64,000 nucleotides of DNA from the NCBI GenBank assembly GCA_029776225.1, contig JAKOTR010000053.1, positions 372,001 through 436,000 on the forward strand, in the 5' to 3' direction. This document shows positions 7,997 through 37,244 of this stretch, one piece after another; the stretch's first letter is position 1; every line of letters starts with the position of its first letter. Below the pieces are notes generated by a model. It saw only the letters and a list, made by a program, of their open reading frames with translations, did not search any database and had not been told where the DNA came from. This DNA is from Acidobacteriota bacterium. GTDB lineage: Bacteria; Acidobacteriota; Terriglobia; Bryobacterales; Bryobacteraceae. Position numbers and translations under genes: made by a program.

Positions 7997-8356
7997 ATGG
8001 AGAGAGCCCAAAAGCAGCAAAAGGCTTTGGCTATCCTCGACCGCTTGCGGACCTGTCTCGACCTGAGCCAGGAGGATCTCGGAACGATGTTCGGCGCAAC
8101 CGGGGAGGACGTGCGCGCGTGGGAGTCCGGCGCAGCCGAGATTCCCGAACTCACTTTCGCCCGGCTGGTTTCGGCGGACGGCGCGCTGGACCGCATGCTG
8201 TGGCTGTTCCGGCCCGACCGCCTGCCGCAGGTGATCCGCCGCCGCGCCGAGGCGTTTAACGGGGAGCGCGCGCTGGAGTGGATTTTCGACGGCCGCATTG
8301 CCGATGTAGCCGACCGCTACGATAGCGGTCTAGCCTACCAGCGCCGCAGCGCGTGA
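7997..8356 (+). CDS. Xre-like HTH protein with MbcA/ParS-type C-terminus (orphan)
   Basis: 119 residues preceded by GAGGGG. The N-terminal 50 residues (LDLSQEDLGTMFGATGEDVR, then AWESG) form a helix-turn-helix of the Xre type. The C-terminal part (RRRAEAFNGERALEWIFDGR, then IADVADRY) resembles the toxin-binding half of Xre/MbcA/ParS antitoxins, whose usual partner is a RES-domain toxin. No RES gene lies on either side: a DUF192 gene precedes it and a peptidase gene on the opposite strand follows 37 bases later. It may be a solitary regulator or the remainder of a toxin-antitoxin pair. Family placement is by eye and tentative. Confidence 0.6.
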   Translation: MERAQKQQKALAILDRLRTCLDLSQEDLGTMFGATGEDVRAWESGAAEIPELTFARLVSADGALDRMLWLFRPDRLPQVIRRRAEAFNGERALEWIFDGRIADVADRYDSGLAYQRRSA

Positions 8357-8393
8357 GCGCCTCGAAGTACACGCGGCCTTAATGGGCGGCCTT

Positions 8394-9212
8394 CTATTTC
8401 TTCTTAGGCGCGGGTGCGCGTGGCGGGCAAGGCTTAAGCGCCACCCACTGCCGCGGGTCTACGGGCACGCCATGGGCATAGAGGCCCCAGTGCAGGTGCG
8501 GTGCGGTAGAGCGCCCGGTGGACCCCACGTATCCGATCACGTCGCCCTTCTTCACCACCGCGCCCTCCTTGACCGCAAACTTCGATAGGTGCAGGTAGAT
8601 CGTTTGAAGTCCCTGGCCGTGATCGATCCCCACCGTGCCGCCATGAACATTCCACATGCGGGCCATCTTCACCACGCCGCCCGCCGCCGCGCGCACCGGA
8701 TGCCCAGCCGGCGATCTCTGGTCCACGCCGGTGTGATAACTTCCGCTCGGCTTGCCGTTGTACAACCGCTGCACGCCGAAAGGCGAACTGATACAGCCAG
8801 AGACCGGAGCAACCAGCGGCTCGTCCCAGTAGCGCTCCTTGCTGAGGTTTTTCCGGAATGTGGCGATGCTCTCCATCTCCCCCGGCGAGGGTTTCAGCTC
8901 CGCCACTGCCTTGCCAAGGATGATGTTCTGCTTCGGGAACCTGGCGTCCCGTACAACGACGTCCCGGGTTTGCAGCACGGCGCCATCCGCTCCCAGCATC
9001 TCCAGGCTGTAGTTGCCCGGCGGCGTTGTCGCGGGCACGGGCATTAGTCCCAGCAGGCTCCCGTCCTCCTGGGCGAACAGGGGAACAGTCTGGTCGTTCA
9101 TGCGCGCTTGCACGGCGCCGGCGGGCCCACGCAGCCGGATCACTTCCCCCTGTTGGACGGAAAGTGTCTGGCCCCACGCCGCCGCCGCAATCAACACAAA
9201 CAGCAAACGCAT
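8394..9212 (-). CDS. M23 family metallopeptidase (LytM-type), secreted
   Basis: M23 peptidases are zinc endopeptidases that cut peptide cross-links of murein; many act in the periplasm. The 272 residues begin with a signal peptide (MRLLFVLIAAAAWGQ) and an N-terminal beta domain of about 125 residues. The catalytic LytM domain follows: SSPFGVQR, SYHTGVDQRS with the metal-binding His and Asp, and APHLHWGLY with the HxH pair, all apparently intact. The ATG at 9212 was chosen because it starts the signal peptide directly; an in-frame start at 9233 adds seven polar residues. The C-terminus is Pro/Lys rich. It is divergent from the polysaccharide operon with a 102-bp gap. Confidence 0.9.
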   Translation of the reverse strand: MRLLFVLIAAAAWGQTLSVQQGEVIRLRGPAGAVQARMNDQTVPLFAQEDGSLLGLMPVPATTPPGNYSLEMLGADGAVLQTRDVVVRDARFPKQNIILGKAVAELKPSPGEMESIATFRKNLSKERYWDEPLVAPVSGCISSPFGVQRLYNGKPSGSYHTGVDQRSPAGHPVRAAAGGVVKMARMWNVHGGTVGIDHGQGLQTIYLHLSKFAVKEGAVVKKGDVIGYVGSTGRSTAPHLHWGLYAHGVPVDPRQWVALKPCPPRAPAPKKK

Positions 9213-9314
9213 CAATTCAGGATAAACGTACACCGGCCGGAATTAGAAGTCGAGTGCGTCCGGAGAGCCGGCTGCCGCGGGGAGAGGCCCCCAGACCCAC
9301 TAGAATGGGAAGAA

Positions 9315-10595
9315 GTGAATGCAGAAGTCTCATTGGATGCGCTGCCCGGCGGCACGCGCCCTCCCTCGCTCCGTGGAAACTTCGCCTGGACAATCGCGGG
9401 AAACACGGTATACGGCGCCGGACAGTGGGCCATCCTGAGCCTGCTGGCCAAGCTGGGCGGGGGGGAGATGCTGGGACAGTACGCGCTCGCCGTCGCCATA
9501 GCGGCGCCGCCGGCCATGCTGTCGCACTTGAACCTGCGCGCGGTATTGGCGACGGACATCAAGCGGTGCTATCCGTTCCGCGACTATTTGGCGGTCCGGC
9601 TCGGGGCAACCGCGGTTTCCCTCGCTGTAATTGCCGCGATCGCGCTTCTTTCCGGCTACGGCGGCACGGTGCAGGCGGCGATCATCCTGATGGGACTTGC
9701 GCTAGGCGCGGAAAACGTGAGCGACCTTTACTACGCCTTAATGCAGCGGCGGGAGCGCATGGATCAGATCGCCCGGTCGATGATCGCGCGCGGCGTTACC
9801 TCGGCGGCGGCGCTTGGGATCACGCTCTGGCTGACGCGCAGCCTGCTTTGGTCGGTGGCGGCGCTGGTGCTGGCGCGGCTGGCGGTCCTGGCGGCGTATG
9901 ACCGCCCGCGGGGCACTGCGGGCGAGGAGCGCGGTAGCGCGGGCATCAGCGCGCGGTGGGCAATTTTCCGTACGGCGCTGCCGCTCGGCGTCTCGCTGAT
10001 GCTGGTTTCGCTGACGGCCAACGTGCCCCGTTACGCCATCGAAGCCAAGCTCGGCACGCGCGAGCTGGGCGCTTTCGCGGCCGTCGCTTCGTTCATGACC
10101 GCAGGCGCGATGGTCATCAACGCGCTGGGGCAGTCCGCCACGCCGCGGCTGGCGCGCTATTTCGCCGAGCGCGACCTGCGGCGGTTCCGCGGCCTCTCGT
10201 TGCGGCTGCTCGGGCTGAGCGCGGCGCTCGGAGCGGCGGGCGTGGCGGGAGCGGCGTTGCTGGGCGGCTTCGTGCTGAGCCTCTTGTACCGTCCCGAGTA
10301 CGCGGCGTACAACGGCCTGTTCGTGGCGGTGATGGGCGCAAGCGTACTTAGCTATACCGGCGCCATGCTGGGATACATCATGACCAGCGCGCGCGCGTTC
10401 GCGCCGCAGATGCCGCTGCTGGCGGCGACGGCGGCAACGGCGGCGGCGGCGAGCTGGATCCTGATTCCGGCCATCGGGCTGCACGGCGCACCGGCGGCGG
10501 TGGCCCTGGCCGCCTGCGTACAGATCGGAGGCGCGGTCTGGGTTCTTTCGCGAACCATGCTGAAACTGCAAGCGCCAGCGGAGGCTGCGGCGTGA
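9315..10595 (+). CDS. Polysaccharide flippase (Wzx/MOP superfamily)
   Basis: 426 residues, almost entirely hydrophobic with about twelve membrane helices separated by short Arg-rich loops, as in O-antigen/EPS flippases. Members move undecaprenyl-linked repeat units across the inner membrane. The first helix region is NTVYGAGQWAILSLLAKLGG, a typical MOP N-terminus. The GTG at 9315 is chosen because homology begins shortly after and GGGAAG lies just upstream; a TTG at 9333 is possible. It is the first gene of a plus-strand polysaccharide operon, and its TGA overlaps the GTG of the next gene by four bases. Confidence 0.85.
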   Translation: MNAEVSLDALPGGTRPPSLRGNFAWTIAGNTVYGAGQWAILSLLAKLGGGEMLGQYALAVAIAAPPAMLSHLNLRAVLATDIKRCYPFRDYLAVRLGATAVSLAVIAAIALLSGYGGTVQAAIILMGLALGAENVSDLYYALMQRRERMDQIARSMIARGVTSAAALGITLWLTRSLLWSVAALVLARLAVLAAYDRPRGTAGEERGSAGISARWAIFRTALPLGVSLMLVSLTANVPRYAIEAKLGTRELGAFAAVASFMTAGAMVINALGQSATPRLARYFAERDLRRFRGLSLRLLGLSAALGAAGVAGAALLGGFVLSLLYRPEYAAYNGLFVAVMGASVLSYTGAMLGYIMTSARAFAPQMPLLAATAATAAAASWILIPAIGLHGAPAAVALAACVQIGGAVWVLSRTMLKLQAPAEAAA

Positions 10596-11791
10596 ACGCA
10601 CGCCGGCAATTCGATCCGTTGGAGAGCGCCGCGTGGCTGCTGCTGTGCCTTTTCGTGTTCTCGATTCCGTGGGAAAAGAGCGTCTGGGTGCCCGGCATCG
10701 GAACAATTTCGCGGTTCCTGGGCATGGTGGCGCTGGCGGCAGGCCTGCTGGCCGCGATCCGGCGGAAATGGACGCGGGCGCCGAACCTGGCGTTCGTCCT
10801 GGCGGGAGCGTTCGTTGCGTGGTCCTGCGCGACTTACTTCTGGAGCCTCGCCCCGGAGGCAACCGCCGCGCGCGGCTGGACCTTCGTGCAACTGCTCGCC
10901 ATGGTGTGGCTGGTTTGGGACCAGGCGCGCGTGGAAGAACGGCCGCCGCAACTCATGCAGGCTTACGTGGCTGGCGCCGTGCTGGCTTCCTTGGCCACGC
11001 TGGCGCGCTACGTGCAAAACCTTCAAACCTATTACCGCCGCTACGCCGCCCCGGGCTTCGACCCGAACGATCTTGCACTCACGGTGGCGCTTTCCATTCC
11101 AATGGCGTTTTATCTGGCGTCGCGCAGCCGGGGCATATGGCCCTGGATGTACCGCGCGGCCGTGCTGCCGGCGATCGCGGCCATTCTGCTGGCGGCCTCA
11201 CGGACGGCGCTGATCGGCGCCTTTCTGGCGTTCTGCTTCGTCATATTCACCTGGAGGCAATCGGACCGGCCGCAGCGCGTCGCGGGCGTACTGCTGCTGG
11301 GAGTGCTGCTGCTCGGCACCTTCCGCCTTGCGCCTTCGGCATCGCGGGAGCGCCTTGCAACCCTGCCTAACGAACTGACGCAGGGCACGCTGCACAACCG
11401 CACCAGGATCTGGAAAGCGGGACTCAAGACGCTGAAACAGTACCCGCTGGCCGGCGCCGGCGCGGCCGCTTATCCCGAGGCCGTGCGGCCCGCGCTCGGC
11501 AGGCCCGCCATCGAAGGGCACGAGTACGTCGCGCACAACACGTTTCTTTCGGTGCTGGTGGAAACCGGAATGATCGGGCTGGCGCTGTACGGGGCGATGC
11601 TCGCCACGCTGGCGGTGTTTGTCTGGATGATGCCGTTTATCGAACGCGTGCTGTGGGCGGTGATGCTGGCGGTGTGGGCCACGGGGGTTTCGACGCTGAC
11701 CTGGGAGCACCGCAAGCCAAGCTGGCTGATCTTCGCGCTCATCATGACCCAGTGGGCAACGGCGTTCCGGCAGGACTGCAAGCGCGCATGA
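10592..11791 (+). CDS. O-antigen ligase/polymerase family membrane protein (Wzy/WaaL type)
   Basis: 399 residues with about ten to twelve predicted membrane helices. A large periplasmic loop carries RTRIWKAGLKTLKQYPLAGA followed by AHNTFLSVLVETGMIGLALY. This is the core of the Wzy_C/O-antigen ligase family, including the conserved Arg and His. The enzyme either polymerises undecaprenyl-linked units or ligates the chain to a carrier; sequence alone does not separate the two. GTG overlaps the TGA of the flippase gene, and its own stop overlaps the next ATG, so the three genes are translationally coupled. Confidence 0.85.
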   Translation: MNARRQFDPLESAAWLLLCLFVFSIPWEKSVWVPGIGTISRFLGMVALAAGLLAAIRRKWTRAPNLAFVLAGAFVAWSCATYFWSLAPEATAARGWTFVQLLAMVWLVWDQARVEERPPQLMQAYVAGAVLASLATLARYVQNLQTYYRRYAAPGFDPNDLALTVALSIPMAFYLASRSRGIWPWMYRAAVLPAIAAILLAASRTALIGAFLAFCFVIFTWRQSDRPQRVAGVLLLGVLLLGTFRLAPSASRERLATLPNELTQGTLHNRTRIWKAGLKTLKQYPLAGAGAAAYPEAVRPALGRPAIEGHEYVAHNTFLSVLVETGMIGLALYGAMLATLAVFVWMMPFIERVLWAVMLAVWATGVSTLTWEHRKPSWLIFALIMTQWATAFRQDCKRA

Positions 11792-12894
11792 AGATCCGCG
11801 TACTCGAAATCATCCCGACACTCAAGCGCGCCGGCGCGGAAAACATGGTTGTATCGCTTGCCTGCCGGCTGGATGGCCGCCGCTTCGAAACCCTGGTGGC
11901 GTCTCTATACGATGCCTTTCCGAACGGGCTCGAGCCGGCGCTGGAGAGAGGCGGGGTTGCCGTGCGGCACCTGGGGAAGCGGCGCGGCTTCGATCCGCGC
12001 ATGTACCCCAGGCTTGCGGCGCTACGGAAGGAGTTTCGGCCGCACGTCGTCCATACGCACTCTTACGTCCTCCGCTATGCGCTGCCGATCTTTGCGCGGC
12101 GCGGCACGGCGATGGTGCATACCGTACACAATCTAGCCGAGCGGGAGGCGGACTGGCCGGGCAGGATGATCCACCGCTACGCGTTCCGCCGCAGGGTCAC
12201 GCCGGTGGCGATCGCGGGCGAGGTGGCGCGCACCGTTCGGGAAGTCTACGGCGTCGAGCCGGAGCTCATCCCCAACGGCATCGAGACCGGCGCGTTTCAG
12301 CGGCCCGAGGCGCGCCTGCCGTGGCGGGCGGCGAACGGCTTCGGCGAGGACGAAATCCTCGTTTTGTCGGCGGCCCGGCTGGACCCGCAGAAGAACCCGC
12401 TGGGGCTAATCGAAGCATTCGCGGCCGCGGCGGCAGGCGATGTCCGCTGCCGCCTGCTGATGGCGGGCGAGGGCAGCCTGATGGAAGAGGCGCGCCGGCG
12501 GGCCGCGCAGTTGGGTGTCGGCGGGCAGGTCAGCTTGCTCGGTGTGCGGACGGACATACCCGAGCTTCTGAACGCCTGCGATGCGTTCGCGCTGGCTTCT
12601 GATTGGGAAGGCCACCCGCTGTCGCTGATGGAGGCCATGGCCACGGGCCTGCCGGTGGTGGCGACAGCGGTGGGCGGCGTCCCCGAAATCGTGGAAGACG
12701 GCGTCACCGGCCTGCTTGTGCCGCCGGGTGACATTCAAGCGCTGGCGCAGGCGCTGGAATGCCTGATCCGGAATCCGCAGCGCCGGCGTGAACTGGGAGA
12801 AGCGGCGCGGGCAGCCTCGACGCGGTTCGATGCCTCGGTCATGGCATCGTCTTATGCGGCACTTTTCGAGCGGGTATGGAAAGCGGCGCTATGA
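11788..12894 (+). CDS. GT4 family glycosyltransferase
   Basis: 368 residues with a GT-B fold. The N-terminal acceptor-side domain starts KIRVLEIIPTLKRAGAENMV. The C-terminal nucleotide-sugar domain holds the EX7E element EGHPLSLME, followed by AVGGVPEIVEDGVTGLLVPP, the GT4 signature. It transfers a sugar to a lipid-linked acceptor on the cytoplasmic face; the donor cannot be told. It starts with an ATGA overlap to the ligase/polymerase gene and ends overlapping the next glycosyltransferase. Confidence 0.9.
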   Translation: MKIRVLEIIPTLKRAGAENMVVSLACRLDGRRFETLVASLYDAFPNGLEPALERGGVAVRHLGKRRGFDPRMYPRLAALRKEFRPHVVHTHSYVLRYALPIFARRGTAMVHTVHNLAEREADWPGRMIHRYAFRRRVTPVAIAGEVARTVREVYGVEPELIPNGIETGAFQRPEARLPWRAANGFGEDEILVLSAARLDPQKNPLGLIEAFAAAAAGDVRCRLLMAGEGSLMEEARRRAAQLGVGGQVSLLGVRTDIPELLNACDAFALASDWEGHPLSLMEAMATGLPVVATAVGGVPEIVEDGVTGLLVPPGDIQALAQALECLIRNPQRRRELGEAARAASTRFDASVMASSYAALFERVWKAAL

Positions 12895-13976
12895 CGACAC
12901 GCATCGTGATGCTCTCGACGAACCTGGCCCGTGGCGGGGCGGAAACGCAGGTTGTGGAACTGGCGCGCGGCCTGCGGCGGAGAGGCTGGGATGTGAGCGT
13001 GATCTCTATGCTGCCGCCGTCGGCTTTCGAAGAAGAACTGGCGGCATGCCGCGTTCCTGTGTATTCCCTGGGGATGCAACCCGGAGTGCCCAATCCGCTG
13101 GGATTCGCGCGGCTCGTGGCGCTGCTTGGAAAATTGAGGCCGCAGGTGCTGCACTGCCACATGTTCCACGCGAATCTGCTGGGGCGGGTAGTGCGCCTGT
13201 TCTGTCCGGTTCCGGTGGTGATTTCGACGATCCACAGCGCAATCGATAGCAGCCGTTCCGGCGGCGGGGCGCGCCTGCGCGAAGCCGTCTACAACCTTAC
13301 CAATCCCCTTGCGGACGTCACGACAAGGGTCTGCCGCACGTCCGGAAGGAAAGGCGTCGTGGTTCCGAACGGCGTGGACACCGCGCGCTTTGCGCCCGAC
13401 CGCGAGACGCGGGAAAGGGTGCGCCGCGAACTCGGCGTTGGCAGCGAATTCGTCTGGCTCGCCGTTGGGCGGCTGATGTGGAAGAAGGACTACCACACGA
13501 TGCTGCGCGCGTTCGCTGCGCAGGGTGAAGGGCTGCTGTGGATTGCGGGCGAGGGACCGCAGGAGGCGGAACTGCGCGCGCTCGCAGCAGACCTCCGCGC
13601 CAACGTGCGCTTCCTGGGCCTGCGCAGCGACGTCCCGGAGCTGATGAAGGCTTGCGACGGCTACCTGCTCAGCTCCGTGATTGAAGGCCTTCCGATGACG
13701 CTGCTCGAAGCGGCGGCGAGCGGCCTGCCTGCGGTGGCGACGGCGGTAGGCGGCGTGGAGGACGTAGTGATCGACGGCCGCACGGGATTCGTTGTGCCTC
13801 CCGGCGATGCAACGGCGTTCGCAAACGCGATGCGGCGCATCGTCCGCATGACGGCAGAAGAGCGCAGCCGGATGGGCCAGGCGGCGCGCGATCACGCGGC
13901 GGCAAACTTCGATATCCGGGCGGTGGTGCTGCGGTGGGAGCGCCTCTACACCCAGCTACTCACCTTGGTCGGTTAG
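12891..13976 (+). CDS. GT4 family glycosyltransferase
   Basis: 361 residues. The N-terminus TTRIVMLSTNLARGGAETQV and the EX7E motif EGLPMTLLE followed by AVGGVEDVVIDGRTGFVVPP place it in GT4. It is the second of three related glycosyltransferases in the operon and may be an old duplicate of the preceding one, as the C-terminal halves are closely alike. The ATG at 12891 overlaps the previous TGA. An in-frame start 15 bases upstream (12876) would add MESGA but lies deeper in the preceding gene. Confidence 0.9.
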   Translation: MTTRIVMLSTNLARGGAETQVVELARGLRRRGWDVSVISMLPPSAFEEELAACRVPVYSLGMQPGVPNPLGFARLVALLGKLRPQVLHCHMFHANLLGRVVRLFCPVPVVISTIHSAIDSSRSGGGARLREAVYNLTNPLADVTTRVCRTSGRKGVVVPNGVDTARFAPDRETRERVRRELGVGSEFVWLAVGRLMWKKDYHTMLRAFAAQGEGLLWIAGEGPQEAELRALAADLRANVRFLGLRSDVPELMKACDGYLLSSVIEGLPMTLLEAAASGLPAVATAVGGVEDVVIDGRTGFVVPPGDATAFANAMRRIVRMTAEERSRMGQAARDHAAANFDIRAVVLRWERLYTQLLTLVG

Positions 13977-13991
13977 GATGGGAGACTGCCC

Positions 13992-14759
13992 ATGGACGTC
14001 ACGAACCGTTTCATGCTGGATTTCGCGAAACGATTCGCGTGCGCCCGGCCCGGCGCGAAGATTCTCGAGTTCGGCTGCGGCGCGGGAGCGGTGGTGATCG
14101 CAGGGCGCGCGGCGGGCCTGGATATCGTTGGCGCGGACGTTTTCTATAGCGGATCGAATGCGCGCGCGGAAGCGGAACGCTCCGGGCTGCTCGGCTCCGC
14201 GATTCTGGAGATTCAAGACGGAAAGCTGCCGTTTCCCGATTCGTATTTCGATTTGATTACCAACAACCAGGTTATGGAGCACGTGGAGGACCTCGACGCC
14301 GTTTTGTGCGAGTTGAACCGCGTGCTGAAACCGGGCGGAACCGTGCTCAGCATCTTCCCTTCGCGCGACGTGTTCCGCGAAGGCCACATCGGGATCCCGT
14401 TCGCCCACTGGTTTAAGAAGGATTCACGCGCGCGGTTCCTGTACACCTGGGCGCTGCGGTCGCTGGGCGCCGGCACGTGGAAGGAGCAGGCGCCGACGCG
14501 GCGGCAGTGGGCCGCCGACAAGCTGAAGTGGATCGACACGTACACGTATTACCGCAGCCGTAAAGAAATTTTTGCGGCGTTCGGGCGTTACTTCCAGACG
14601 GAACTGCGCGAGCCCGACTACATACGCTACCGGCTGCGCGACCGGCGTTCGCTTGCGCCGCTGGAGCGGCTGCTCGATTTGCCGGGCGCGCCGGGTGCGG
14701 CGGCGGCGTTGTTCCGCAAGCTCGCCTTCCTGGTGCTCGTATCCCGCAAGCCGGCCTGA
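13992..14759 (+). CDS. SAM-dependent methyltransferase (Methyltransf_11 type)
   Basis: 255 residues. Motif I is ILEFGCGAGAVVI (about residues 24-36), with the acidic residue after strand two in DIVGADVF. The later segment ITNNQVMEHVEDLDAVLCEL with RVLKPGGTVLSIFP is typical of class I methyltransferases. The C-terminal half is a basic domain ending in a hydrophobic helix (AAALFRKLAFLVLVS), which may touch the membrane. Position within the operon suggests methylation of a sugar in the polysaccharide or its lipid intermediate; the target is unknown. Confidence 0.85.
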   Translation: MDVTNRFMLDFAKRFACARPGAKILEFGCGAGAVVIAGRAAGLDIVGADVFYSGSNARAEAERSGLLGSAILEIQDGKLPFPDSYFDLITNNQVMEHVEDLDAVLCELNRVLKPGGTVLSIFPSRDVFREGHIGIPFAHWFKKDSRARFLYTWALRSLGAGTWKEQAPTRRQWAADKLKWIDTYTYYRSRKEIFAAFGRYFQTELREPDYIRYRLRDRRSLAPLERLLDLPGAPGAAAALFRKLAFLVLVSRKPA

Positions 14760-14767
14760 CTGGAACC

Positions 14768-15898
14768 ATGAGAATCGCCTACGTCATAACTCGTGCCGAT
14801 GCCGTTGGAGGCGCCAGCATCCACGTGCGCGACATGGCCCGCGAGATGTTATCGCGCGGGCACGAGGTCATGGTGTTTTCCGGAGGCGAAGGGCCGGTAA
14901 CAGGGCTGCTGAAATGCGCGGGCGTTCCCTTCCGCCCGCTCGCATTCCTCCAACGCGCGGTGAACCCGTACCGCGATGCGCGGGCCTATTACGAGCTGGC
15001 GGAAGCGCTTGAAGAGTACCGGCCGGAGCTTGTTTCCACCCATACGGCCAAAGCCGGATGGATCGGCCGCGCGGCCTGCGCGCGGTTGGGCCTGCCGGTC
15101 CTTTATACTCCGCACGGCTGGCCCTTTGAGGACCGCATGGGCAGGCTCCGGGGGCCGCTATTCGCGATTGCGGAGAGAGCCGCGGCGCGGTGGGCGGGCG
15201 GAATTGTCTGCGTGTCGCAGTTTGAACGGGAGCTGGCGCTGAAACGGCGAATCGCAAGCCCGGAAAGACTCCACTTGATTTACAACGGGGTGCGCGACGT
15301 CCCGCCTGCTCTCCGGGCCGAACCCGGGGCGCGGCCGGTGCGCATCATCTGCGTCGCGCGATTCGAACCGCCCAAGGACCACCATACGCTGCTGGAGGCG
15401 CTGGCGGCGCTGCGGGAAGCGGATTGGGAACTGGAGCTAGTGGGCGACGGGCCGTTGGAGGACAACGTCCGCAACGTCGCCGCGAAACTGGGCATCGGCG
15501 CGCGCATCCGCTGGTCGGGATACCAAATTGACCCCGCAGCCGCCCTGGCGCGCGCGCAAATTTTCGCTCTATCTTCGACCTCGGAGGGATTTCCCCGGAG
15601 CATCCTGGAGGCCATGCGGGCCGGGCTGCCGGTGGTGGCTTCGGATGTCGGGGGCGTCAGGGAGGCGGTCGCCAACGGCGTCAGCGGATACCTCGTGCCG
15701 CGGCGGGATCCGGGCGCGATGTCGGCGGCGCTGGGGAAGTTGATAAAAAGTGCTTCAGAGAGGCAACTACTCGGTACCGCTGCACGTCGGATATACGAGG
15801 AGAGATTCCGTTTCGAGGGGATGTTCGATAAAACGGTCGCTCTCTATGATACGTTGAAAGATAGATTCCCCTCGGCGCGGAAGCGGTATTCAGCATGA
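14768..15898 (+). CDS. GT4 family glycosyltransferase
   Basis: 376 residues. MRIAYVITRADAVGGASIHV is a GT4 N-terminus. LVSTHTAKAGWIGRAAC and YTPHGWPFEDR resemble EpsD/WcfD-type enzymes, and EGFPRSILE is the EX7E motif, followed by SDVGGVREAVANGVSGYLVP. The last 60 bases are less GC rich than the rest. It ends in a four-base ATGA overlap with the initiating transferase gene. Its acceptor is likely a lipid-linked mono- or oligosaccharide made by the neighbouring genes. Confidence 0.9.
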   Translation: MRIAYVITRADAVGGASIHVRDMAREMLSRGHEVMVFSGGEGPVTGLLKCAGVPFRPLAFLQRAVNPYRDARAYYELAEALEEYRPELVSTHTAKAGWIGRAACARLGLPVLYTPHGWPFEDRMGRLRGPLFAIAERAAARWAGGIVCVSQFERELALKRRIASPERLHLIYNGVRDVPPALRAEPGARPVRIICVARFEPPKDHHTLLEALAALREADWELELVGDGPLEDNVRNVAAKLGIGARIRWSGYQIDPAAALARAQIFALSSTSEGFPRSILEAMRAGLPVVASDVGGVREAVANGVSGYLVPRRDPGAMSAALGKLIKSASERQLLGTAARRIYEERFRFEGMFDKTVALYDTLKDRFPSARKRYSA

Positions 15899-16587
15899 GC
15901 ACGTTAGTAAGACCGGCTCCAGTATATGGGGCGCCTGCCCTGGTAATTCAACAGCGAACGGGACTCCTCCGCCCGGAATTCCAGCGGCTCAAGCGAGTCT
16001 TCGACGTGATCTTCGCGCTGCTGCTGGGGCTGATTGCATTGCCTGCCGGCCTGCTAATCGCCGCGGCGATCGTCATCGATTCGCGCGGCCCCGTGTTCTT
16101 CACCCATACAAGGATCGGCAAAGGGAACCGGCGGTTCCGGCTGTGGAAGTTCCGTTCCATGATCACTAACGCCGACGAAGTGCTCGAGGAATACTTAAGA
16201 GCACATCCCGGCATGGCTGTGGAATGGCATTTGAAACACAAGCTGCGCAACGATCCGCGGGTGACCCGCGTCGGACGCTTCTTACGAAAGACAAGCCTGG
16301 ATGAACTGCCTCAGCTCTGGAACGTGCTGCGGGGCGACATGAGCATGGTCGGACCGCGGCCCATCGTCGAGGCCGAAATCCCCAAGTACGGCGCTGCCTT
16401 TGCGCTTTACTCGCGGGTACGGCCAGGACTGACCGGGCTGTGGCAGGTTTCCGGAAGGAACGATACGACCTACCGCGAGCGGGTGGAGCTTGATTCCAGG
16501 TACATCCGTAACTGGACGCCGCTTGTCGATTTCGGCGTACTGTTAAAGACGGTCAAGGTCGTTCTCGGCGGGCGCGGCGCATATTAG
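15895..16587 (+). CDS. Initiating phosphosugar transferase (PglC/WbaP C-terminal type)
   Basis: These enzymes move a sugar-1-phosphate from a UDP-sugar to undecaprenyl phosphate, the first step in repeat-unit synthesis. The 230 residues hold the minimal catalytic core: a membrane re-entrant helix (KRVFDVIFALLLGLIALPAG), then RIGKGNRRFRLWKFRSM, the catalytic Asp-Glu pair in TSLDELPQLWNVLRGDMS and MVGPRPI. It lacks the extra transmembrane bundle of full-length WbaP, so it resembles monotopic PglC. It closes the polysaccharide operon; initiation being encoded last is common. Confidence 0.9.
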   Translation: MSTLVRPAPVYGAPALVIQQRTGLLRPEFQRLKRVFDVIFALLLGLIALPAGLLIAAAIVIDSRGPVFFTHTRIGKGNRRFRLWKFRSMITNADEVLEEYLRAHPGMAVEWHLKHKLRNDPRVTRVGRFLRKTSLDELPQLWNVLRGDMSMVGPRPIVEAEIPKYGAAFALYSRVRPGLTGLWQVSGRNDTTYRERVELDSRYIRNWTPLVDFGVLLKTVKVVLGGRGAY

Positions 16588-16644
16588 AGCTGGCGAATCG
16601 AACGTCACGGCGTGCACCCCGCACCGCGCTATCCTGAAGTGAAG

Positions 16645-18909
16645 ATGTTGCGGAGCACGCGCGTTCTGCTGCTCCTGGCCTTCGTCCTGATGCTTGGCGC
16701 GGTCGGAGCTTCGTGGTACCGCCAGAAGTCTACCCTGTCGCGCGAGGCGCCCAAGCCGCCTAAATCCCTTCCGCTCGACACCACCACTGTCGCCACCGAC
16801 TGGGTGTTGACGAAGGACCAGGGCGGCCGCATCGTCTACGAAGTCCGTGCCCGCGACTTCCGGCAGTTGAACGAGCCCAGCCGGCTGGAACTCGACAACG
16901 TCGAGATCCGTTTGTTCAAGCCCGACGGCAACACGTTCGACCGGATAAGCTGCGCGCGCGCCCAGTTCGACCAGGTCACCGAGACGCTGTACTCCGAGGG
17001 CGAGGTCGAGATCAGCATGGGCATGCCCGCCGATGGAGCGCCCCCGGGACGCCTGCTTGCCATCGGCAGTTCCGGCGTCAGTTTCGACGTCAAGACAAGC
17101 GTCGTGAGCACCGATCGCGAGGTCGGCTTCACGTTCGATTTCGGCGGGGGTAAGGCTGTGGGCGCGGCCTACAATCCGACGTACCGCGAGCTGATTTTGA
17201 AGAGCGAGGTCGAGCTCCACTGGCACGGCGCCGGGCCGCAAACCCGGCCCATGAAGCTCGAAGCCCAGGAACTGATTTACCGGGAGGCGGACTCGCTCGT
17301 GCTGCTCCCGGCGTGGTCGCGTTTTACTCGCGAGGGAGTTGAGCTGAACGCCACCAACTCGGTGGTGACGCTCGAAGAGGGCATGATCCGGAAGATCGAG
17401 GGCAAACAGGCGCGCGGCTCGGCAGTTTATCCCAACCGCAAAATCGAGTACGCCGCCGACGAACTGCTGATGCTTCTGGATGCGGGCGGCGAGATCGAGA
17501 AACTGGTCGGCAGCCGCAACGCCCGCATGACCGCAACGTCGGATTCAGCGCGAACCGGCACCACCGCCGACCGCGTGGAGCTCGACTTCAATACGGCCGC
17601 GGGCGAAAGCGTGCTCAGGAGAGCCCTGGCCATGGGCAATGCGTCGATGGAGTCCGTGCCCCTCCCGCGCAAGGGCGTGCAGCCGCCGGAAACGCGCCGG
17701 CTGCGTAGCGAGGCGATCGTGATCACCATGCGGGAGGGGGGCCGCGAAGTGGCCACGGTCGAAACGCACGCCCCGGGACACCTGGAGTTCCTCCCGAACC
17801 ACCAGGGGCAGCGGCGGCGCACGCTCGATGCGGAGCGAATTACCATACGCTACGGCCCGGAAAACCGCATCGAATCCGTCAGCGCATACAAGGCGGCCAC
17901 CAGGACCGATCCCCCGCCGCGCCCGCCAGGCGACAAGCGGCCGCCCGATCCCCCCGTGCTGACCTGGAGCAACGAGTTCCGCGCCGACTTCGACCCCAAG
18001 ACCGGCCAGCTTGCCCGGCTCGAGCAGTGGAACGACTTCCGCTACGAGGAAGGCGACCGCAGGGCCCTCGCCTACCGCGCCGTACTCGAAGAGGCGCGCG
18101 GCATGGTTGTTCTCGAACAGGCCGCCCGCGTCTGGGACTCCACCGGTTCGACCGCCGCCGACCGCATCACGCTGGACCAGAAATCGGGCGATGTGCTGGC
18201 CGAGGGCAACGTCGTATCCATGCGGCTGCCCGAGAAAAAGGGCGCGTCTTCGCCGGTACTGTCGCAGGAGGAGCCTTTAAACGCGCGTGCGGCGCGCATG
18301 ACGACCACGGAGCGCAATCGAAAGATCCACTACGAGGGCGGCGTAACCCTTTGGCAGGGCGCTAACCACATCTGGGCGGACAGCCTCGATATCGACCGCG
18401 CCAGCCGCCGCCTCACCGCGCAAGGAAACGTGCGCACGCGGTTCCTTGAGCGGCAAACCGCCGAGCAGAAAAAGGAAGCAAAGGCGAAACCGGCCGCAGT
18501 ATTCCTTGAAGTCACGGCGCAGAACCTGGTTCACACCGAGGCCGAACGCCTGGCCCACTACACCGGCGGCGCCCGGCTCACGCGTCCCGGCTTCGAGGTG
18601 AAAGCCTCGGAAATCCGCGCGTGGTTCAATGAGAGCGGCGCCGGCTCCTCGCTGGACCGCGCCTTCGCGGACGGGGCGGTGGAGATCGTCCGCAACGCAA
18701 GCCGCCGCACCCTGACCGGGACCAGCGAGCATGCCGAGTATTTCGCCGCCGAGCAAAAGGTAGTCCTCAACAGAGGCAACCCCACGCTGGTGGACAGCGC
18801 CCGCGGGTACACGAAAGGCCGCGAGTTGACCTACTGGGCCGATAACGATAAGCTGCTCGTGAATGGAATCGAGGAGGAGCCCGTCAAAACGCTGATCAAA
18901 CGGCGTTAG
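16645..18909 (+). CDS. LPS-transport bridge protein: LptC-like N-terminus with LptA/OstA-like repeats
   Basis: 754 residues. An N-terminal membrane anchor ([20 protein letters not shown]) is followed by an LptC-like domain: [20 protein letters not shown], then [13 protein letters not shown]. The C-terminal half has LptA/OstA-type beta-jellyroll repeats, for example [36 protein letters not shown] and [12 protein letters not shown]. coli LptC and LptA are separate proteins of about 190 residues; here both seem to lie in one chain that could span the periplasm. The ATG at 16645 begins the anchor; a GTG at 16612 gives a longer form. It lies 10 bases before lptB. Confidence 0.75.
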
Positions 18910-30414: not shown

Positions 30415-31773
30415 ATGCGGAGTACAAGCAACCAGCGGCAGGCCGTGGACCCCAGCCTGACGGCCACGCCCAGCAAGGGGCACGTGGGTACCGACGTAGC
30501 TGACATCGAACGCGACGCGCTCGCCGATAATCCCTCCTGGATTCTCGTGCAAAGGATATCCGCCAGCGCGTGTTTCCAAAATTCGCCTCGTCTCAGACAG
30601 CTTTTGCTTTACCTTTGTGAACGCGCGTTGCTCAACCGCCCCGACGATCTTCGCGAGCAACTGATCGGTTGTAACGTTTTCCTCCGCAAGCCCGATTACA
30701 ACCCGGGAGAGGACAACGTCGTCCGCGTCCAAATCCGGCGCCTTCGACAACGCCTTGATGAGTATTTCAACTCCGAGGGAAGGGATGAACCGATTATCAT
30801 TAGTATTCCCAAAGGTTCCTATATCCCGGTTTTTCTTCCACGCAAACTTAGCGATAGCGGGACGCCGGCGGCAGCCGCTATACCGGCGCACGGGAGGCGG
30901 TACCGGATCGCCCCCATCGCGGCCGCTGCCATCGCCCTGCTTGGCATCGGGTTTGTAGCCGGACTTTGGACGGCGGGGGGCCCTCGGGCGCCGGACTGGT
31001 CACCGCTGTGGCCCGCCATCTTCAATCCCAACGAGAAGACTCTGATTGTCTGCGCCGACTCGACGCTGGTTATGGCCCAGGCACTTCTGCGCCGCCCTCT
31101 CTCCCTGGATGATTACGCCAGGCGCCGCTACGCCCCGCCCGGAGCCGTGTTGGGAAAGGATGCGGAAAGAATACTCAGCTTGCTTCCGGCATGGACGTGG
31201 ACCGATCTTGCCGACGTTCGTCTGGTCGGCCGCCTCCAGAGCGTCACTTCGGACTGGGACAGGATCTCGATCCGCACGGCAAAAACGGTCCAGATCCACG
31301 ATTTCACCAGCGGCAATGCGATCATTGTGGGAAGCGTTCAATCGAATCCCTGGAACGCCCTGTTCGATCAGCAGCTTAACTTTCGGGTGGAGTGGGACGA
31401 GCTGAAAAACACGGCTTACGTTCGGAACAAATCGCCTTTACCCGGCGAACATCCGGTGTACCCCCCCACTGAGGGAGGCGACCGTTCGGTAGTGTACAGC
31501 GTGATTGCATTTGTTCCGAACCTGCGGCGCAGCGGCAATATCCTCATCATTGCGGGAACCACGGGGCAAGCCACGGAAACGGCGGCAGAACACGTGACTA
31601 ACCCCGCCACTTACAAGCAGCTTATGCGGATGATTACCAGCCGCAACGGCGGGGAACTCCCCTACTTCGAGGTCCTTCTGAAGTCAAGCATGGTCGAGGG
31701 TATCGCGAAGGACGCCGAGGTGGTTGCTTTCCGTATTCTTGGCCCGGGCCCCAAGACCAGCAAGTCCGCGTGA
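30415..31773 (+). CDS. Membrane-tethered winged-helix regulator, ToxR/CadC-like topology
   Basis: 452 residues. The cytoplasmic part (about 45-143) has ACFQNSPRLRQLLLYLCERA, then REQLIGCNVFLRKPDYNPGE followed by VVRVQIRRLRQRLDEYF, and ends IPKGSYIPVFLP. This DNA-binding-like module is common at the N-terminus of acidobacterial proteins. A single helix follows (residues 165-187, APIAAAAIALLGIGFVAGLW), then a 265-residue domain predicted to be periplasmic and of no family I recognise. N-terminal DNA binding, one helix and an outer sensor is the ToxR/CadC plan. It is divergent from the Oar receptor, which is its obvious candidate target. No clear ribosome binding site precedes the ATG. Confidence 0.7.
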   Translation: MRSTSNQRQAVDPSLTATPSKGHVGTDVADIERDALADNPSWILVQRISASACFQNSPRLRQLLLYLCERALLNRPDDLREQLIGCNVFLRKPDYNPGEDNVVRVQIRRLRQRLDEYFNSEGRDEPIIISIPKGSYIPVFLPRKLSDSGTPAAAAIPAHGRRYRIAPIAAAAIALLGIGFVAGLWTAGGPRAPDWSPLWPAIFNPNEKTLIVCADSTLVMAQALLRRPLSLDDYARRRYAPPGAVLGKDAERILSLLPAWTWTDLADVRLVGRLQSVTSDWDRISIRTAKTVQIHDFTSGNAIIVGSVQSNPWNALFDQQLNFRVEWDELKNTAYVRNKSPLPGEHPVYPPTEGGDRSVVYSVIAFVPNLRRSGNILIIAGTTGQATETAAEHVTNPATYKQLMRMITSRNGGELPYFEVLLKSSMVEGIAKDAEVVAFRILGPGPKTSKSA

Positions 31774-31791
31774 GGGGCGGGCGGCAGAGGC

Positions 31792-32096
31792 CTTATTGCC
31801 TCACGCCGGCAAGAAATTTTTGTCTGGGTTCCAAGCCGCGGTCCAGTTTCTGCAAGGGGGGGTGGAGTACTTATTGCGTTAAACCGGCAAGAAGAGTCTT
31901 GGATGCGCTCCAGGCCGCGTTCGAGTTCCTGACAGGGGTTGCGGGCTTATTGCGTCAGGCCGGCAAGGAATTTTCCATGCGGTCCAAGCGGAGTCCGAGT
32001 TCCTGCCGGGAAGTGGCGGACTTATTGCACTAGGCCCGCAAGAAAAGTTTGGATGCGGTCCAGACCGCGTTCCAGCTCGTGCATGGAGGTGGCGTA
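31792..32096 (-). repeat. Four tandem 75-78 bp copies of the aminotransferase 3' end
   Basis: Units start with CTTATTGC at 31792, 31870, 31946 and 32021, giving spacings of 78, 76 and 75 bases. The last unit is the true 3' end of the aminotransferase gene; the three beyond it are diverged copies. Read on the minus strand, each ends with CAATAA and the preceding codons give variants of the C-terminal peptide FLAGLVQ: GLTQ, GLTQ and AGVRQ, each followed by a stop. The upstream ELERGLDRIQ part survives as ELERGLERIQ and KLDRGLEPRQ, with one-base indels in two copies. These look like ancient tandem duplications. They are not CRISPR: there are no spacers and the units decay. Confidence 0.8.
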
Positions 32097-33212
32097 AGAG
32101 ATCCTGATGTGGGAGCTGGTGCCGAAGGCCTCGCCCGGCACGACGGCGACCTGCTGCTCCTGCAACAGCCGTTCGGCAAACTGCGCGGTGTTCTCGATGC
32201 CGTTGCGGCCGAGCGCCGCCCCGATATTCGGATAAACGTAAAAGGCCCCCATCGGCTCCGCGCACGAGATGCCCGGGATTGCCTTCAACCGGCGGAGCAC
32301 GAATTCGCGCCGCCGCCGGTATTCGGCAAGCATGATCCGGATGGAATCCTGCGGGCCACGCAACGCTTCCACGCCGGCCTTCTGAGCCACCGAATTCGGG
32401 TTCGACGTGGAATGGCTCTGGAGCTTGGCCACCGCCTCAATAATGGGCTGCGGACCCAGGCCAAAACCAATGCGCCAGCCGGTCATCGCGTAGGTTTTCG
32501 ATAGCGAGCCGGCGACAATCACCGTCGCCTTTGCTCCTGGGGCGGAAGCGACGGAGTACGGCGCGCCGCCGTAGACGAAATGGCAGTAGCATTCGTCCGT
32601 AAGCAGGTAGATGCCGCGGCGCGAAGTGAGGCTCAGAATGCGCTCAAACTCCTCGGGATCGATCACCGCGCCGCTCGGGTTTGACGGCGAATTCACAATC
32701 AGAACCTTCGTGCGGCTGGTGAGGTACGGCTCGATGAGCGAGGCGGTCAGCCGGAACCCCTGTTTTTCGTCCGTGGGGGCGAAGACGCATTTGCCGCCGG
32801 CGTAGGCGACCACGTCGCGGAACGTGACCCAGTACGGAACCGGGATGATGACCTCGTCGCCCGGATTCACAAGCACCTGGATGACGTTGAACACCACGTG
32901 CTTGCCGCCCACGGAGATGACGCACTCCGAAGGCGAGTAGCGCGTATTGAAGTCGGCCGCGTGACGGTCGCACACCGCCTCTTTCAGCTCCGGAATGCCG
33001 CTGGCGGCCGTATACCGGGTGAAATCCTCTTCGATGGCGCGGACCGCGGCCTCCTTGATGTTGGCGGGAGTGGGAAAATCCGGCTCGCCGGGCCCCAAGT
33101 CCACCACGTCCTCGCCGGCGCGGCGCAGGCTCTCCGCGGCAGCCGCTACGCGCATCGTGGTGGAGACGCTGATCCGCGATATTCTGTCCGCCAGGTCCGC
33201 CGCCTGCAGCAT
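32022..33212 (-). CDS. Class I/II PLP-dependent aminotransferase (AspC/AAT-I family)
   Basis: 396 residues, fold type I. The Schiff-base lysine is in GSLSKTYAMTGWRIGFGLG, and other family marks are VDLGPGEPDFPTP near the N-terminus, SPSNPSGAVIDPEE and the C-terminal Arg in HIRISYATS that holds the substrate carboxylate. It most resembles the aspartate/prephenate aminotransferase subgroup, so it probably serves amino-acid synthesis; the exact substrate is not fixed by sequence. The ATG at 33212 lies seven bases after the coaD stop; an in-frame GTG at 33239 would overlap coaD. The last 25 codons were duplicated downstream in tandem. Confidence 0.93.
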   Translation of the reverse strand: MLQAADLADRISRISVSTTMRVAAAAESLRRAGEDVVDLGPGEPDFPTPANIKEAAVRAIEEDFTRYTAASGIPELKEAVCDRHAADFNTRYSPSECVISVGGKHVVFNVIQVLVNPGDEVIIPVPYWVTFRDVVAYAGGKCVFAPTDEKQGFRLTASLIEPYLTSRTKVLIVNSPSNPSGAVIDPEEFERILSLTSRRGIYLLTDECYCHFVYGGAPYSVASAPGAKATVIVAGSLSKTYAMTGWRIGFGLGPQPIIEAVAKLQSHSTSNPNSVAQKAGVEALRGPQDSIRIMLAEYRRRREFVLRRLKAIPGISCAEPMGAFYVYPNIGAALGRNGIENTAQFAERLLQEQQVAVVPGEAFGTSSHIRISYATSMHELERGLDRIQTFLAGLVQ

Positions 33213-33219
33213 GCGCTGA

Positions 33220-33702
33220 TTACACGCCTCTCGGAACACGCTCTCTGAGGCGCGCCTCCACGGAAGGCGGCACCATGTTCGCCACGTCGCCGCCGAGGCG
33301 GAACACTTCCTTGACCAGCTTCGAGCTAACGAACGAGTACGCTTCGCTGGCCATGAGAAAAACGGTTTCGATACTCGGGCAGAGCCGCCGGTTCATCAGA
33401 GCCATCTGCAGCTCGTACTCGTAATCGGAAATAGCGCGGATGCCGCGTATGATGATGCTGGCCTGCTTCCGCCGGGCGTAATCCACCAGCAGGCCGTCGA
33501 ACGAATCCACCTCGATGCGTGGGTTCTCGCCCACGACCTCGCGCAACATCTCCATGCGCTCGGCGGCGGTGAAGAACGGTTGCTTGTGTTGGTTGCGCAG
33601 GACCGCGACGATCAGGCGGTCGCAGAGCTTGGCGCCACGCTCGATCAAGTCAAGGTGGCCGTTCGTGATGGGGTCGAATGACCCCGGATAGATAGCAATC
33701 AT
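33220..33702 (-). CDS. coaD: Phosphopantetheine adenylyltransferase
   Basis: CoaD joins 4'-phosphopantetheine and ATP to give dephospho-CoA, the fourth step of CoA synthesis. The 160 residues match the family length. MIAIYPGSFDPITNGHLDLI carries the TxGH nucleotidyltransferase motif. IIIRGIRAISDYEYELQMAL follows, and the C-terminal signature here reads AYSFVSSKLVKEV. The ATG at 33702 starts exactly where the family does; the frame is open to 33750, but the added residues (MKQPRMPLQPAEK) have no counterpart in homologues. It is followed by the aminotransferase on the same strand. Confidence 0.96.
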   Translation of the reverse strand: MIAIYPGSFDPITNGHLDLIERGAKLCDRLIVAVLRNQHKQPFFTAAERMEMLREVVGENPRIEVDSFDGLLVDYARRKQASIIIRGIRAISDYEYELQMALMNRRLCPSIETVFLMASEAYSFVSSKLVKEVFRLGGDVANMVPPSVEARLRERVPRGV

Positions 33703-33782
33703 GTTGTGCGGCTTCTCCGCGGGCTGCAAAGGCATGCGGGGCTGTTTCAATTCGATTCTAGCGAAAAACGCGGCCGAAACGC

Positions 33783-36848: not shown

Positions 36849-37211
36849 GGCCTGCCGGACGGGCAGTCGCCCCCACACGGGGGAGGAAAGTCCGGTCTCC
36901 AAAGGGCAGCGTGCCGGCTAACGGCCGGGGGAATCCGCTCAAAGCGGGTTTCACGGAAAGTGCCACAGAAAACATACCGCCGGGCGGTTTCCGTCCGGTA
37001 AGGGTGAAAAGGTGCGGTAAGAGCGCACCGCGGCCGGAGTAATCCGGCTGGCAGGGTAAACCCCACGCGGAGCAAGACCAAATAGGAGAGGAGGAGTGGC
37101 CCGCTCCGTTTGACTCTCGGGTAGGTCGCTTGAGCCTGGCAGTAATGCCTGGCCTAGATGAATGACTGCCGCCCGCAAGGGTACAGAAACCGGCTTATAG
37201 TCCGGCGGGCC
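36849..37211 (+). ncRNA. rnpB: RNase P RNA, bacterial type A
   Basis: Catalytic RNA of RNase P, which trims the 5' leader of tRNA precursors. The ends pair as stem P1: GGCCTGCCGGAC (36849-36860) with GTCCGGCGGGCC (37200-37211), with one G-U. Conserved regions are present: GAGGAAAGTCCGG at 36883-36895 with the following TCTCC, and ACAGAAACCGGCTTATAG near 37183-37200, the CR V element that closes P4. The length of 363 bases is normal. The transcript is divergent from the OmpA-like gene, and the convergent GH15 gene ends 33 bases later. Confidence 0.95.
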
Positions 37212-37244
37212 TTAGCAGACCCACCCCTCCGTTTCCTTTCCTTC

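What the first reader, a model, noticed from the sequence alone, without database searches (positions are those of the whole stretch)
31792..32096. An aminotransferase gene end copied four times in tandem
Three diverged 75-78 bp copies of the last codons and stop of the aminotransferase lie directly beyond the real stop. Each keeps the CAATAA stop context, and the C-terminal peptide pattern is still readable. Tandem copies of only a gene's 3' end are uncommon. They could come from repeated strand slippage, or the 3' end may work as RNA (3' UTR element, terminator or small RNA source) and be selected in multiple copies.
Basis: seen in the sequence. Interest (0 to 1): 0.6.

Follow-up and report, generated by a model that had tools for sequence, protein, structure and literature searches.

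The report
Decaying tandem copies of gene end
The last 75 or so bases of an aminotransferase gene in a probable acidobacterium were copied three more times just past the stop codon and then left to decay; this is most likely harmless copying slippage, though this one genome seems to have several such cases at other gene ends.

Summary
On the minus strand, the last 75 bp of a class I/II aminotransferase gene (stop 32022-32024) is followed by three diverged head-to-tail copies (75, 76, 78 bp). Pairwise identity is 72-78%, and 0 of 1000 shuffles match any pair. The array was found once in the genome and behind none of 78 homologous loci that had enough downstream sequence.

I found no sign of function: indels break the frame, substitutions fall on all codon positions, invariant columns are not clustered, RNA folding is ordinary, and no terminator lies on the gene's strand. 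Near-equal distances suggest one old burst. Best reading: slippage-type tandem duplication, tolerated because the first copy keeps the gene intact.

The extra result: this genome may do it repeatedly. In a 1.22 Mb sample, all five strong non-CRISPR arrays outside genes span the stop of unrelated genes (units 71-81 bp); in 1.6 Mb of relatives, 0 of 4 do. It works like a degenerate minisatellite; arrays starting inside gene ends are already described in Borg elements (PMC9879509, passages).

The parts
32022..33239 (-). Aminotransferase class I/II gene; start at 33239 (GTG) or 33218
   Evidence: PF00155 E 2.5e-73; NCBIfam PLP-dependent aminotransferase models, none above its own cut-off among the best 25 of 73 shown; full-length matches at 57-74% aa identity in 36 of 40 relatives' genomes; of the other four, G005 and G025 hold only partial matches and G001 and G007 at best 41% and 40%
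32022..32096 (-). Unit 0: gene's own 3' end, last 25 codons including TAA
   Evidence: alignment of units
31946..32020 (-). Copy 1 (75 bp), frame broken, ends GCAATAAG
   Evidence: 56/77 identical to the gene unit, 0/1000 shuffles
31870..31945 (-). Copy 2 (76 bp), frame broken, ends GCAATAAG
   Evidence: 59/76 identical to the gene unit, 0/1000 shuffles
31792..31869 (-). Copy 3 (78 bp), ends GCAATAAG
   Evidence: 56/78 identical to the gene unit, 0/1000 shuffles
30415..31773 (+). Convergent neighbour gene (452 aa, no family) whose stop lies 18 bp past copy 3
   Evidence: ORF list; no Pfam or NCBIfam family at E 0.001; no tblastn match at 1e-4 in 80 loci L003-L082, some of which are cut short
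33220..33750 (-). coaD, upstream neighbour, also found near the aminotransferase in relatives
   Evidence: TIGR01510; matched in 64 of 80 loci L003-L082

Best explanation
A degenerate minisatellite made by local tandem duplication. A 75-bp stretch ending just past the aminotransferase stop codon was duplicated to four copies in a short time, probably by replication slippage or unequal exchange (inferred). The gene-proximal copy still supplies the normal C-terminus and stop, so the gene was not harmed and the extra copies became untranslated spacer between two convergent genes. They have since drifted by substitutions and small indels to about 75% identity with no detectable constraint (shown). 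The event is probably younger than the split from the nearest genus member with this gene, G002 (inferred).
For: Significant tandem similarity and abutting copies. Copies carry 1-2 bp indels that break the frame; differences by codon position are even (5,6,9; 6,6,9; 8,6,9). Invariant columns are not clustered: longest run P 0.10, best 22-column window P 0.15. No fold signal. Similar pairwise distances; raw differences of 0.20-0.31 are below the 0.508 third-position difference from the G002 orthologue. Not seen in relatives: of 29 loci none exceeds the best of 50 shuffles, though two equal it; of 51 loci two had too little downstream sequence and, of 49 scored, three had 0-1 of 100 shuffles, none reaching the stop or tandem. 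Array A of the same genome shows the process: two copies here, one in G001 and G002 with the same next gene.
Against: All four units keep GCAATAAG and TTGC-N9-GCAA unchanged, which could be a weak site. The array has kept four copies through roughly 15% change per copy, long for dispensable bacterial DNA. The stop bias of arrays in this genome (5 of 5 strong ones; 6 of 8 at the lower threshold) is higher than a simple placement model gives (6 of 8: P 0.002-0.018; 5 of 7 without the focal array: 0.007-0.042).
Confidence: 0.8

Rival explanations
1. The genome has a lineage-specific process that tandemly copies gene 3' ends in units of about 71-81 bp, and the focal array is one product.
For: In a 1.2165 Mb sample, the non-CRISPR arrays outside genes with score above 166 are 5, all spanning a stop, with units of 71, 75, 76, 79 and 81 bp; in about 1.6 Mb of relatives there are 4 such arrays, none spanning a stop (Fisher 0.008, without the focal array 0.029). 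At the first threshold (129): 6 of 8 against 0 of 6, Fisher 0.010, without focal 0.021. The genes are of different families and the arrays share no clear element. At gene tails there is an excess of downstream similarity (34 genes, 15.5 expected at score 32) that gene heads lack here (14, 13.8 expected).
Against: Small numbers, home-made gene calls, one draft genome, threshold first set from one control (4 of 10 later controls had rows above it). The weaker tail excess is not special to this genome: 13 against 3.5 in G006. Survival bias also favours stops. A locus outside Acidobacteriota (L077, Caldibacillus), left out of the relatives' count, has an ORF that ends in a tandem repeat, so such ends are not confined to this lineage.
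Confidence: 0.17
2. The copies are a multi-copy RNA or DNA element (terminator, 3' UTR stabiliser, protein site TTGC-N9-GCAA) kept by selection.
For: GCAATAAG and TTGC-N9-GCAA are invariant in 4 of 4 units; a terminator-like hairpin with T run lies in copy 3 on the plus strand.
Against: Invariance not above chance given overall identity; z-scores near zero or positive; terminator hit at chance (1 found, 1.0 expected); the dyad is not repeated elsewhere (9 further genome matches with 2 mismatches, the reversed control 8).
Confidence: 0.06
3. Copies are scars of site-specific integration into the gene's 3' end (att duplications) or of a rearrangement.
For: The convergent neighbour gene was not matched in any of 80 loci around homologues, so the downstream side of the gene has probably changed.
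Against: The copies abut with no element between them.
Confidence: 0.03

Closest known systems
Bacterial minisatellites / variable-number tandem repeats (general kind, from recall)
   Same: Head-to-tail copies of a unit of tens of bp in a spacer between genes, usually explained by slippage.
   Different: Copies are old and diverged (72-78%); no copy-number variation could be tested.
Tandem repeats of Borg elements (PMC9879509; passages seen)
   Different: Borg units are perfect, enriched in A, and 18-21 nt in the examples seen; here units are about 75 bp and diverged, in a sample of 62-64% GC.
Mycobacterial interspersed repetitive units, MIRU (passages in PMC12548453 and PMC2734929)
   Same: Units of 40-100 bp at gene junctions, with copy numbers that can vary; insertion with little effect on the gene.
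   Different: MIRU are a dispersed family that appears mobile and inserts at start codons; here each array is made around its own gene's end and no clear sequence is shared with the others.
Repeats of Candidatus Solibacter usitatus Ellin6076 (PMC3174227; passages seen)
   Same: An acidobacterial genome reported to have 8.7-fold more repeats than Ellin345, mostly under 50-100 nt.
   Different: The passages seen do not describe copies of gene ends.

Membership tests
Bacterial minisatellite | Several head-to-tail copies of a unit longer than about 10 bp | tested here: met
   four units, period 75-78
Bacterial minisatellite | Copy number varies between strains (VNTR) | not testable with these tools
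   none of the 40 relatives is of this species (best 74% aa); one search says records very near the window's genome may be left out
MIRU-like dispersed family | Related units at many places in the genome | tested here: not met
   one place in the genome; of 30 comparisons between the six arrays, three (all with array A) had 1-5 of 200 shuffles at or above the score, with short matches, about one expected
Borg-type tandem repeat | Perfect unit copies | tested here: not met
   72-78% identity
Borg-type tandem repeat | First unit within or partly within a gene end | tested here: met
   unit 0 holds the gene's last 25 codons
Tandem intrinsic terminators | G+C-rich hairpin plus T run in each copy on the gene's strand | tested here: not met
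   none on the minus strand; one weak site on plus at chance level
Repeat in a protein (coding tandem repeat) | Unit length a multiple of three and open frame through copies | tested here: not met
   stop at the end of unit 0; units 75, 76, 78 bp; frames broken
Diversity-generating retroelement | Reverse transcriptase beside template and variable repeats at a gene's 3' end | not tested
   considered from recall only; no search for a reverse transcriptase was made

The most novel reading that the evidence does not exclude
This lineage has a mutational process, not found described for bacteria in the searches made here, that tandemly copies the DNA around stop codons in units of about 71-81 bp at unrelated genes, seeding new 3' untranslated regions; roughly two dozen such arrays would be expected genome-wide if the sample is typical (6 in 1.22 of 5.18 Mb).
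Probability: 0.15. Interest if true: 0.6.

Novelty: new member of a known kind. Interest (0 to 1): 0.3.

Why it matters
Alone, the array is a clear fossil of harmless tandem duplication at a gene end. If the bias towards stop codons in this genome holds up, it would be a tractable case of how bacterial 3' untranslated regions and spacers grow, and it would ask why duplications of one size class collect at gene ends in one lineage and not in its relatives.

Tried and rejected
Conserved dyad TTGC-N9-GCAA as a protein site: rejected as unproven; its invariance is within chance and the genome has no further exact copy.

RNA element or terminator: no fold, terminator or Rfam support.

Coding repeat or plus-strand ORF through the array (31770-32033, 87 aa): frames of the copies are broken; no Pfam family for the ORF.

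Shared mobile element between the six arrays: 30 comparisons, three with 1-5 of 200 shuffles, short matches only.

Selective keeping of stop triplets in copies (e.g. TAG, TGA, TAA in array D): seen by eye. I judged it possible by chance and did no formal test.

Tail-against-downstream test for arrays B and C in orthologues: too blunt, since it also misses these two arrays in the own genome (22 and 32 of 100 shuffles). For these the TRF scan is the better evidence.

Rows dropped before the relatives' count: 13 loci outside Acidobacteriota (L067-L070, L072, L075-L082), among them L077 with a tandem repeat at an ORF end; and L227, which overlaps L226. 17.8 kb of the 434.6 kb were seen before in other loci. 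In one search genes near contig ends and beside the CRISPR array were left out (980 of 989 used for G000).

No title or abstract start seen there reports stop-spanning arrays as a genome-wide feature of bacteria; the claim rests on these searches only. Passages were seen in five papers, none read in full.

Full report
What is there. The window lies at G000:C21:372001-436000 of a draft genome of 5.18 Mb in 115 contigs. Named relatives in the genome collection are mostly Bryobacteraceae/Bryobacterales and other Acidobacteriota, so the host is probably of that group; no record named it. An aminotransferase of class I/II (PF00155) runs on the minus strand and stops at 32022-32024. Behind it lie three copies of its last 75 bp or so, of 75, 76 and 78 bp, and then 18 bp up to the stop of a convergent gene. 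Pairwise identity is 72-78% and no shuffle out of 1000 reaches any of the six pair scores; a fifth copy is not detectable. GCAATAAG is unchanged in all four units.

Is it elsewhere. The array is found once in its own genome, and the pattern TTGCNGGNNTNNNGCAATAAG occurs exactly only in the four units; allowing two mismatches adds nine places, while the reversed control gives eight. The homologue was examined in 29 loci of related genomes: none exceeded the best of 50 shuffles of its downstream sequence, and two equalled it. In 51 further loci from named genomes, two had too little downstream sequence; of the 49 scored, L042 and L045 had 1 of 100 and L070 0 of 100 shuffles at or above the score. 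In one search (1000 shuffles: 10, 46 and 0) the matches of these three lay 175-308 bp downstream, did not reach the stop and were not tandem. So none of 78 homologous loci with enough downstream sequence shows the array. Twelve of the 49 are homologues under 50% identity, and L054 and L064 are the same places as L020 and L017. TRF on 92 of the relatives' small loci also finds no stop-spanning array at score 100 or more.

Does it do anything. The copies have indels that break the frame, and substitutions against the gene unit fall evenly on codon positions (5,6,9; 6,6,9; 8,6,9). Invariant columns are 39 of 79; their longest run and best 22-column window are not unusual (P 0.10 and 0.15). RNA folding of either strand is ordinary (z -0.73 and -0.53), as are single units. 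The terminator scan finds one weak site, on the plus strand, with 1.0 expected. Rfam at gathering scores finds only RNase P, elsewhere in the window. The six pairwise distances are 0.24-0.32 by local and 0.33-0.39 by global alignment, close to a star, which suggests that the copies arose close together in time and have not been homogenised since. The third-position difference between this gene and the G002 orthologue is 0.508, more than the copies differ, so the array is probably younger than that split. That step is inference.

A wider pattern. I took 1.2165 Mb of the same genome in stretches (window included) and 1.1715 Mb from three relatives, called genes with a simple codon model and ran Tandem Repeats Finder with permissive settings. 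Periods of at least 25 and scores above 129, the maximum of one shuffled control, gave nine arrays not inside a gene. One is a CRISPR array beside cas9 and cas1. Of the other eight, six span a stop codon: the focal array F (76 bp x 4), A (79 bp x 2), B (75 x 2.6), C (71 x 3.4), D (81 x 2.9), E (34 x 3.1). One spans a start and one is intergenic. In the relatives' 1.1715 Mb and in 92 small loci of 434.6 kb (17.8 kb of it counted twice; 13 loci outside Acidobacteriota left out), six arrays outside genes passed the same mark and none spans a stop: five intergenic, one start. One of the five (L034 5-115) lies at a contig end, so its class is uncertain. Fisher's test gives 0.010, or 0.021 without the focal array, which was the reason for looking. 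Ten more shuffled controls had maxima up to 166, four of them above 129. At the stricter mark of 166 the counts are 5 of 5 against 0 of 4; Fisher 0.008, without focal 0.029. A placement model for a 76-bp unit gives stop-spanning 22% of non-disruptive places, or 33% if places spanning both a stop and a start are counted; 6 of 8 has P 0.002-0.018, and 5 of 7 without the focal array P 0.007-0.042.

The genes of these arrays are of different families: Lip_A_acyltrans (B), GyrI-like (C), DUF6920/DUF6544 (D), 3-keto-disaccharide hydrolase (E) and a protein only weakly like LolA (A, below the Pfam cut-off). The array units share no clear element. For A, the orthologues in G001 and G002 have the same next gene, judged by eye from the start of its sequence, and a single copy of the region, so the duplication probably happened in this lineage. 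For B, C and E the tail test shows nothing in the relatives' loci, but it also misses B and C in the own genome; the TRF scan, which covers these loci, finds no stop-spanning array there. D's orthologues were not searched.

Against the wider pattern: numbers are small, gene calls are home-made, and the relatives are not of the same genus except for a few small loci. A more sensitive comparison of gene tails with their downstream 300 bp gives 34 genes against 15.5 expected at score 32 in this genome (gene heads with upstream: 14 against 13.8), but 13 against 3.5 in G006 as well; only the strong cases set this genome apart (4 against 0.8 at score 40; G010 and G006 none, G028 1 against 0.5). Outside Acidobacteriota, L077 (Caldibacillus) has an ORF ending in a tandem repeat, so such ends exist elsewhere.

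Mechanism. A tandem duplication that takes in a stop codon leaves the gene intact, because the first copy carries the same last codons and stop; the added copies are untranslated. A duplication inside a gene usually damages it. So stop-spanning duplications survive, and afterwards decay as spacer. This explains the focal array without any function. Whether survival alone explains the excess over start-spanning and intergenic arrays in this genome, and the narrow unit size of 71-81 bp in five of six, is open.

Comparison with known things. Tandem repeats that begin inside gene ends are reported for Borg elements (passages of PMC9879509), there with perfect, A-enriched units, 18-21 nt in the examples seen. 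MIRU of mycobacteria are 40-100 bp (passages of PMC2734929) and insert at start codons (passage of PMC12548453), but are a dispersed family; the focal array fails that test. In some lake bacterioplankton, noncoding deletions were often tied to intergenic tandem repeats, put down to slippage (one passage of PMC9426551). Ellin6076 has many repeats (passages of PMC3174227).

Noticed in passing
L116 15623-15778 (array A, G000:C21:626623-626778): 79-bp unit spanning the stop of a 277-aa gene, two copies; single copy in G001 and G002 with the same next gene.
   Followed up: yes
L112 5324-5511 (array B, G000:C21:538324-538511): 75-bp unit spanning the stop of a lipid A acyltransferase-type gene, about 2.6 copies.
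   Followed up: partly
L122 2308-2542 (array C, G000:C17:99808-100042): 71-bp units beginning at the stop of a GyrI-like gene and reaching towards glmS (named from recall by sight of its translation); first unit folds well (z -3.96).
   Followed up: partly
L093 19348-19576 (array D, G000:C21:136348-136576): 81-bp units spanning the stop of a DUF6920/DUF6544 gene; by eye the aligned triplet is TAG, TGA, TAA in the three copies.
   Followed up: partly
L120 13809-13910 (array E, G000:C17:72309-72410): 34-bp units, three copies, repeating about the last ten codons and stop of a 3-keto-disaccharide hydrolase-like gene.
   Followed up: partly
L140 about 8241-18187 (G000:C45:105741-115687): Type II CRISPR: 5.4 kb array of repeats of 36-37 bp (length by eye) with Cas1 and a Cas9 of 1020 aa.
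   Followed up: partly
L077 6361-6966 (Caldibacillus thermoamylovorans): An ORF ending in a tandem repeat region of about 50-bp units; its tail matches downstream at score 124. It may not be a real gene.
   Followed up: partly
window 36851-37213: RNase P RNA, bacterial class A, plus strand.
   Followed up: no
window 30415-31773: 452-aa convergent gene without any Pfam or NCBIfam family and not matched in 80 loci around aminotransferase homologues; coaD on the other side is matched in 64 of them.
   Followed up: partly
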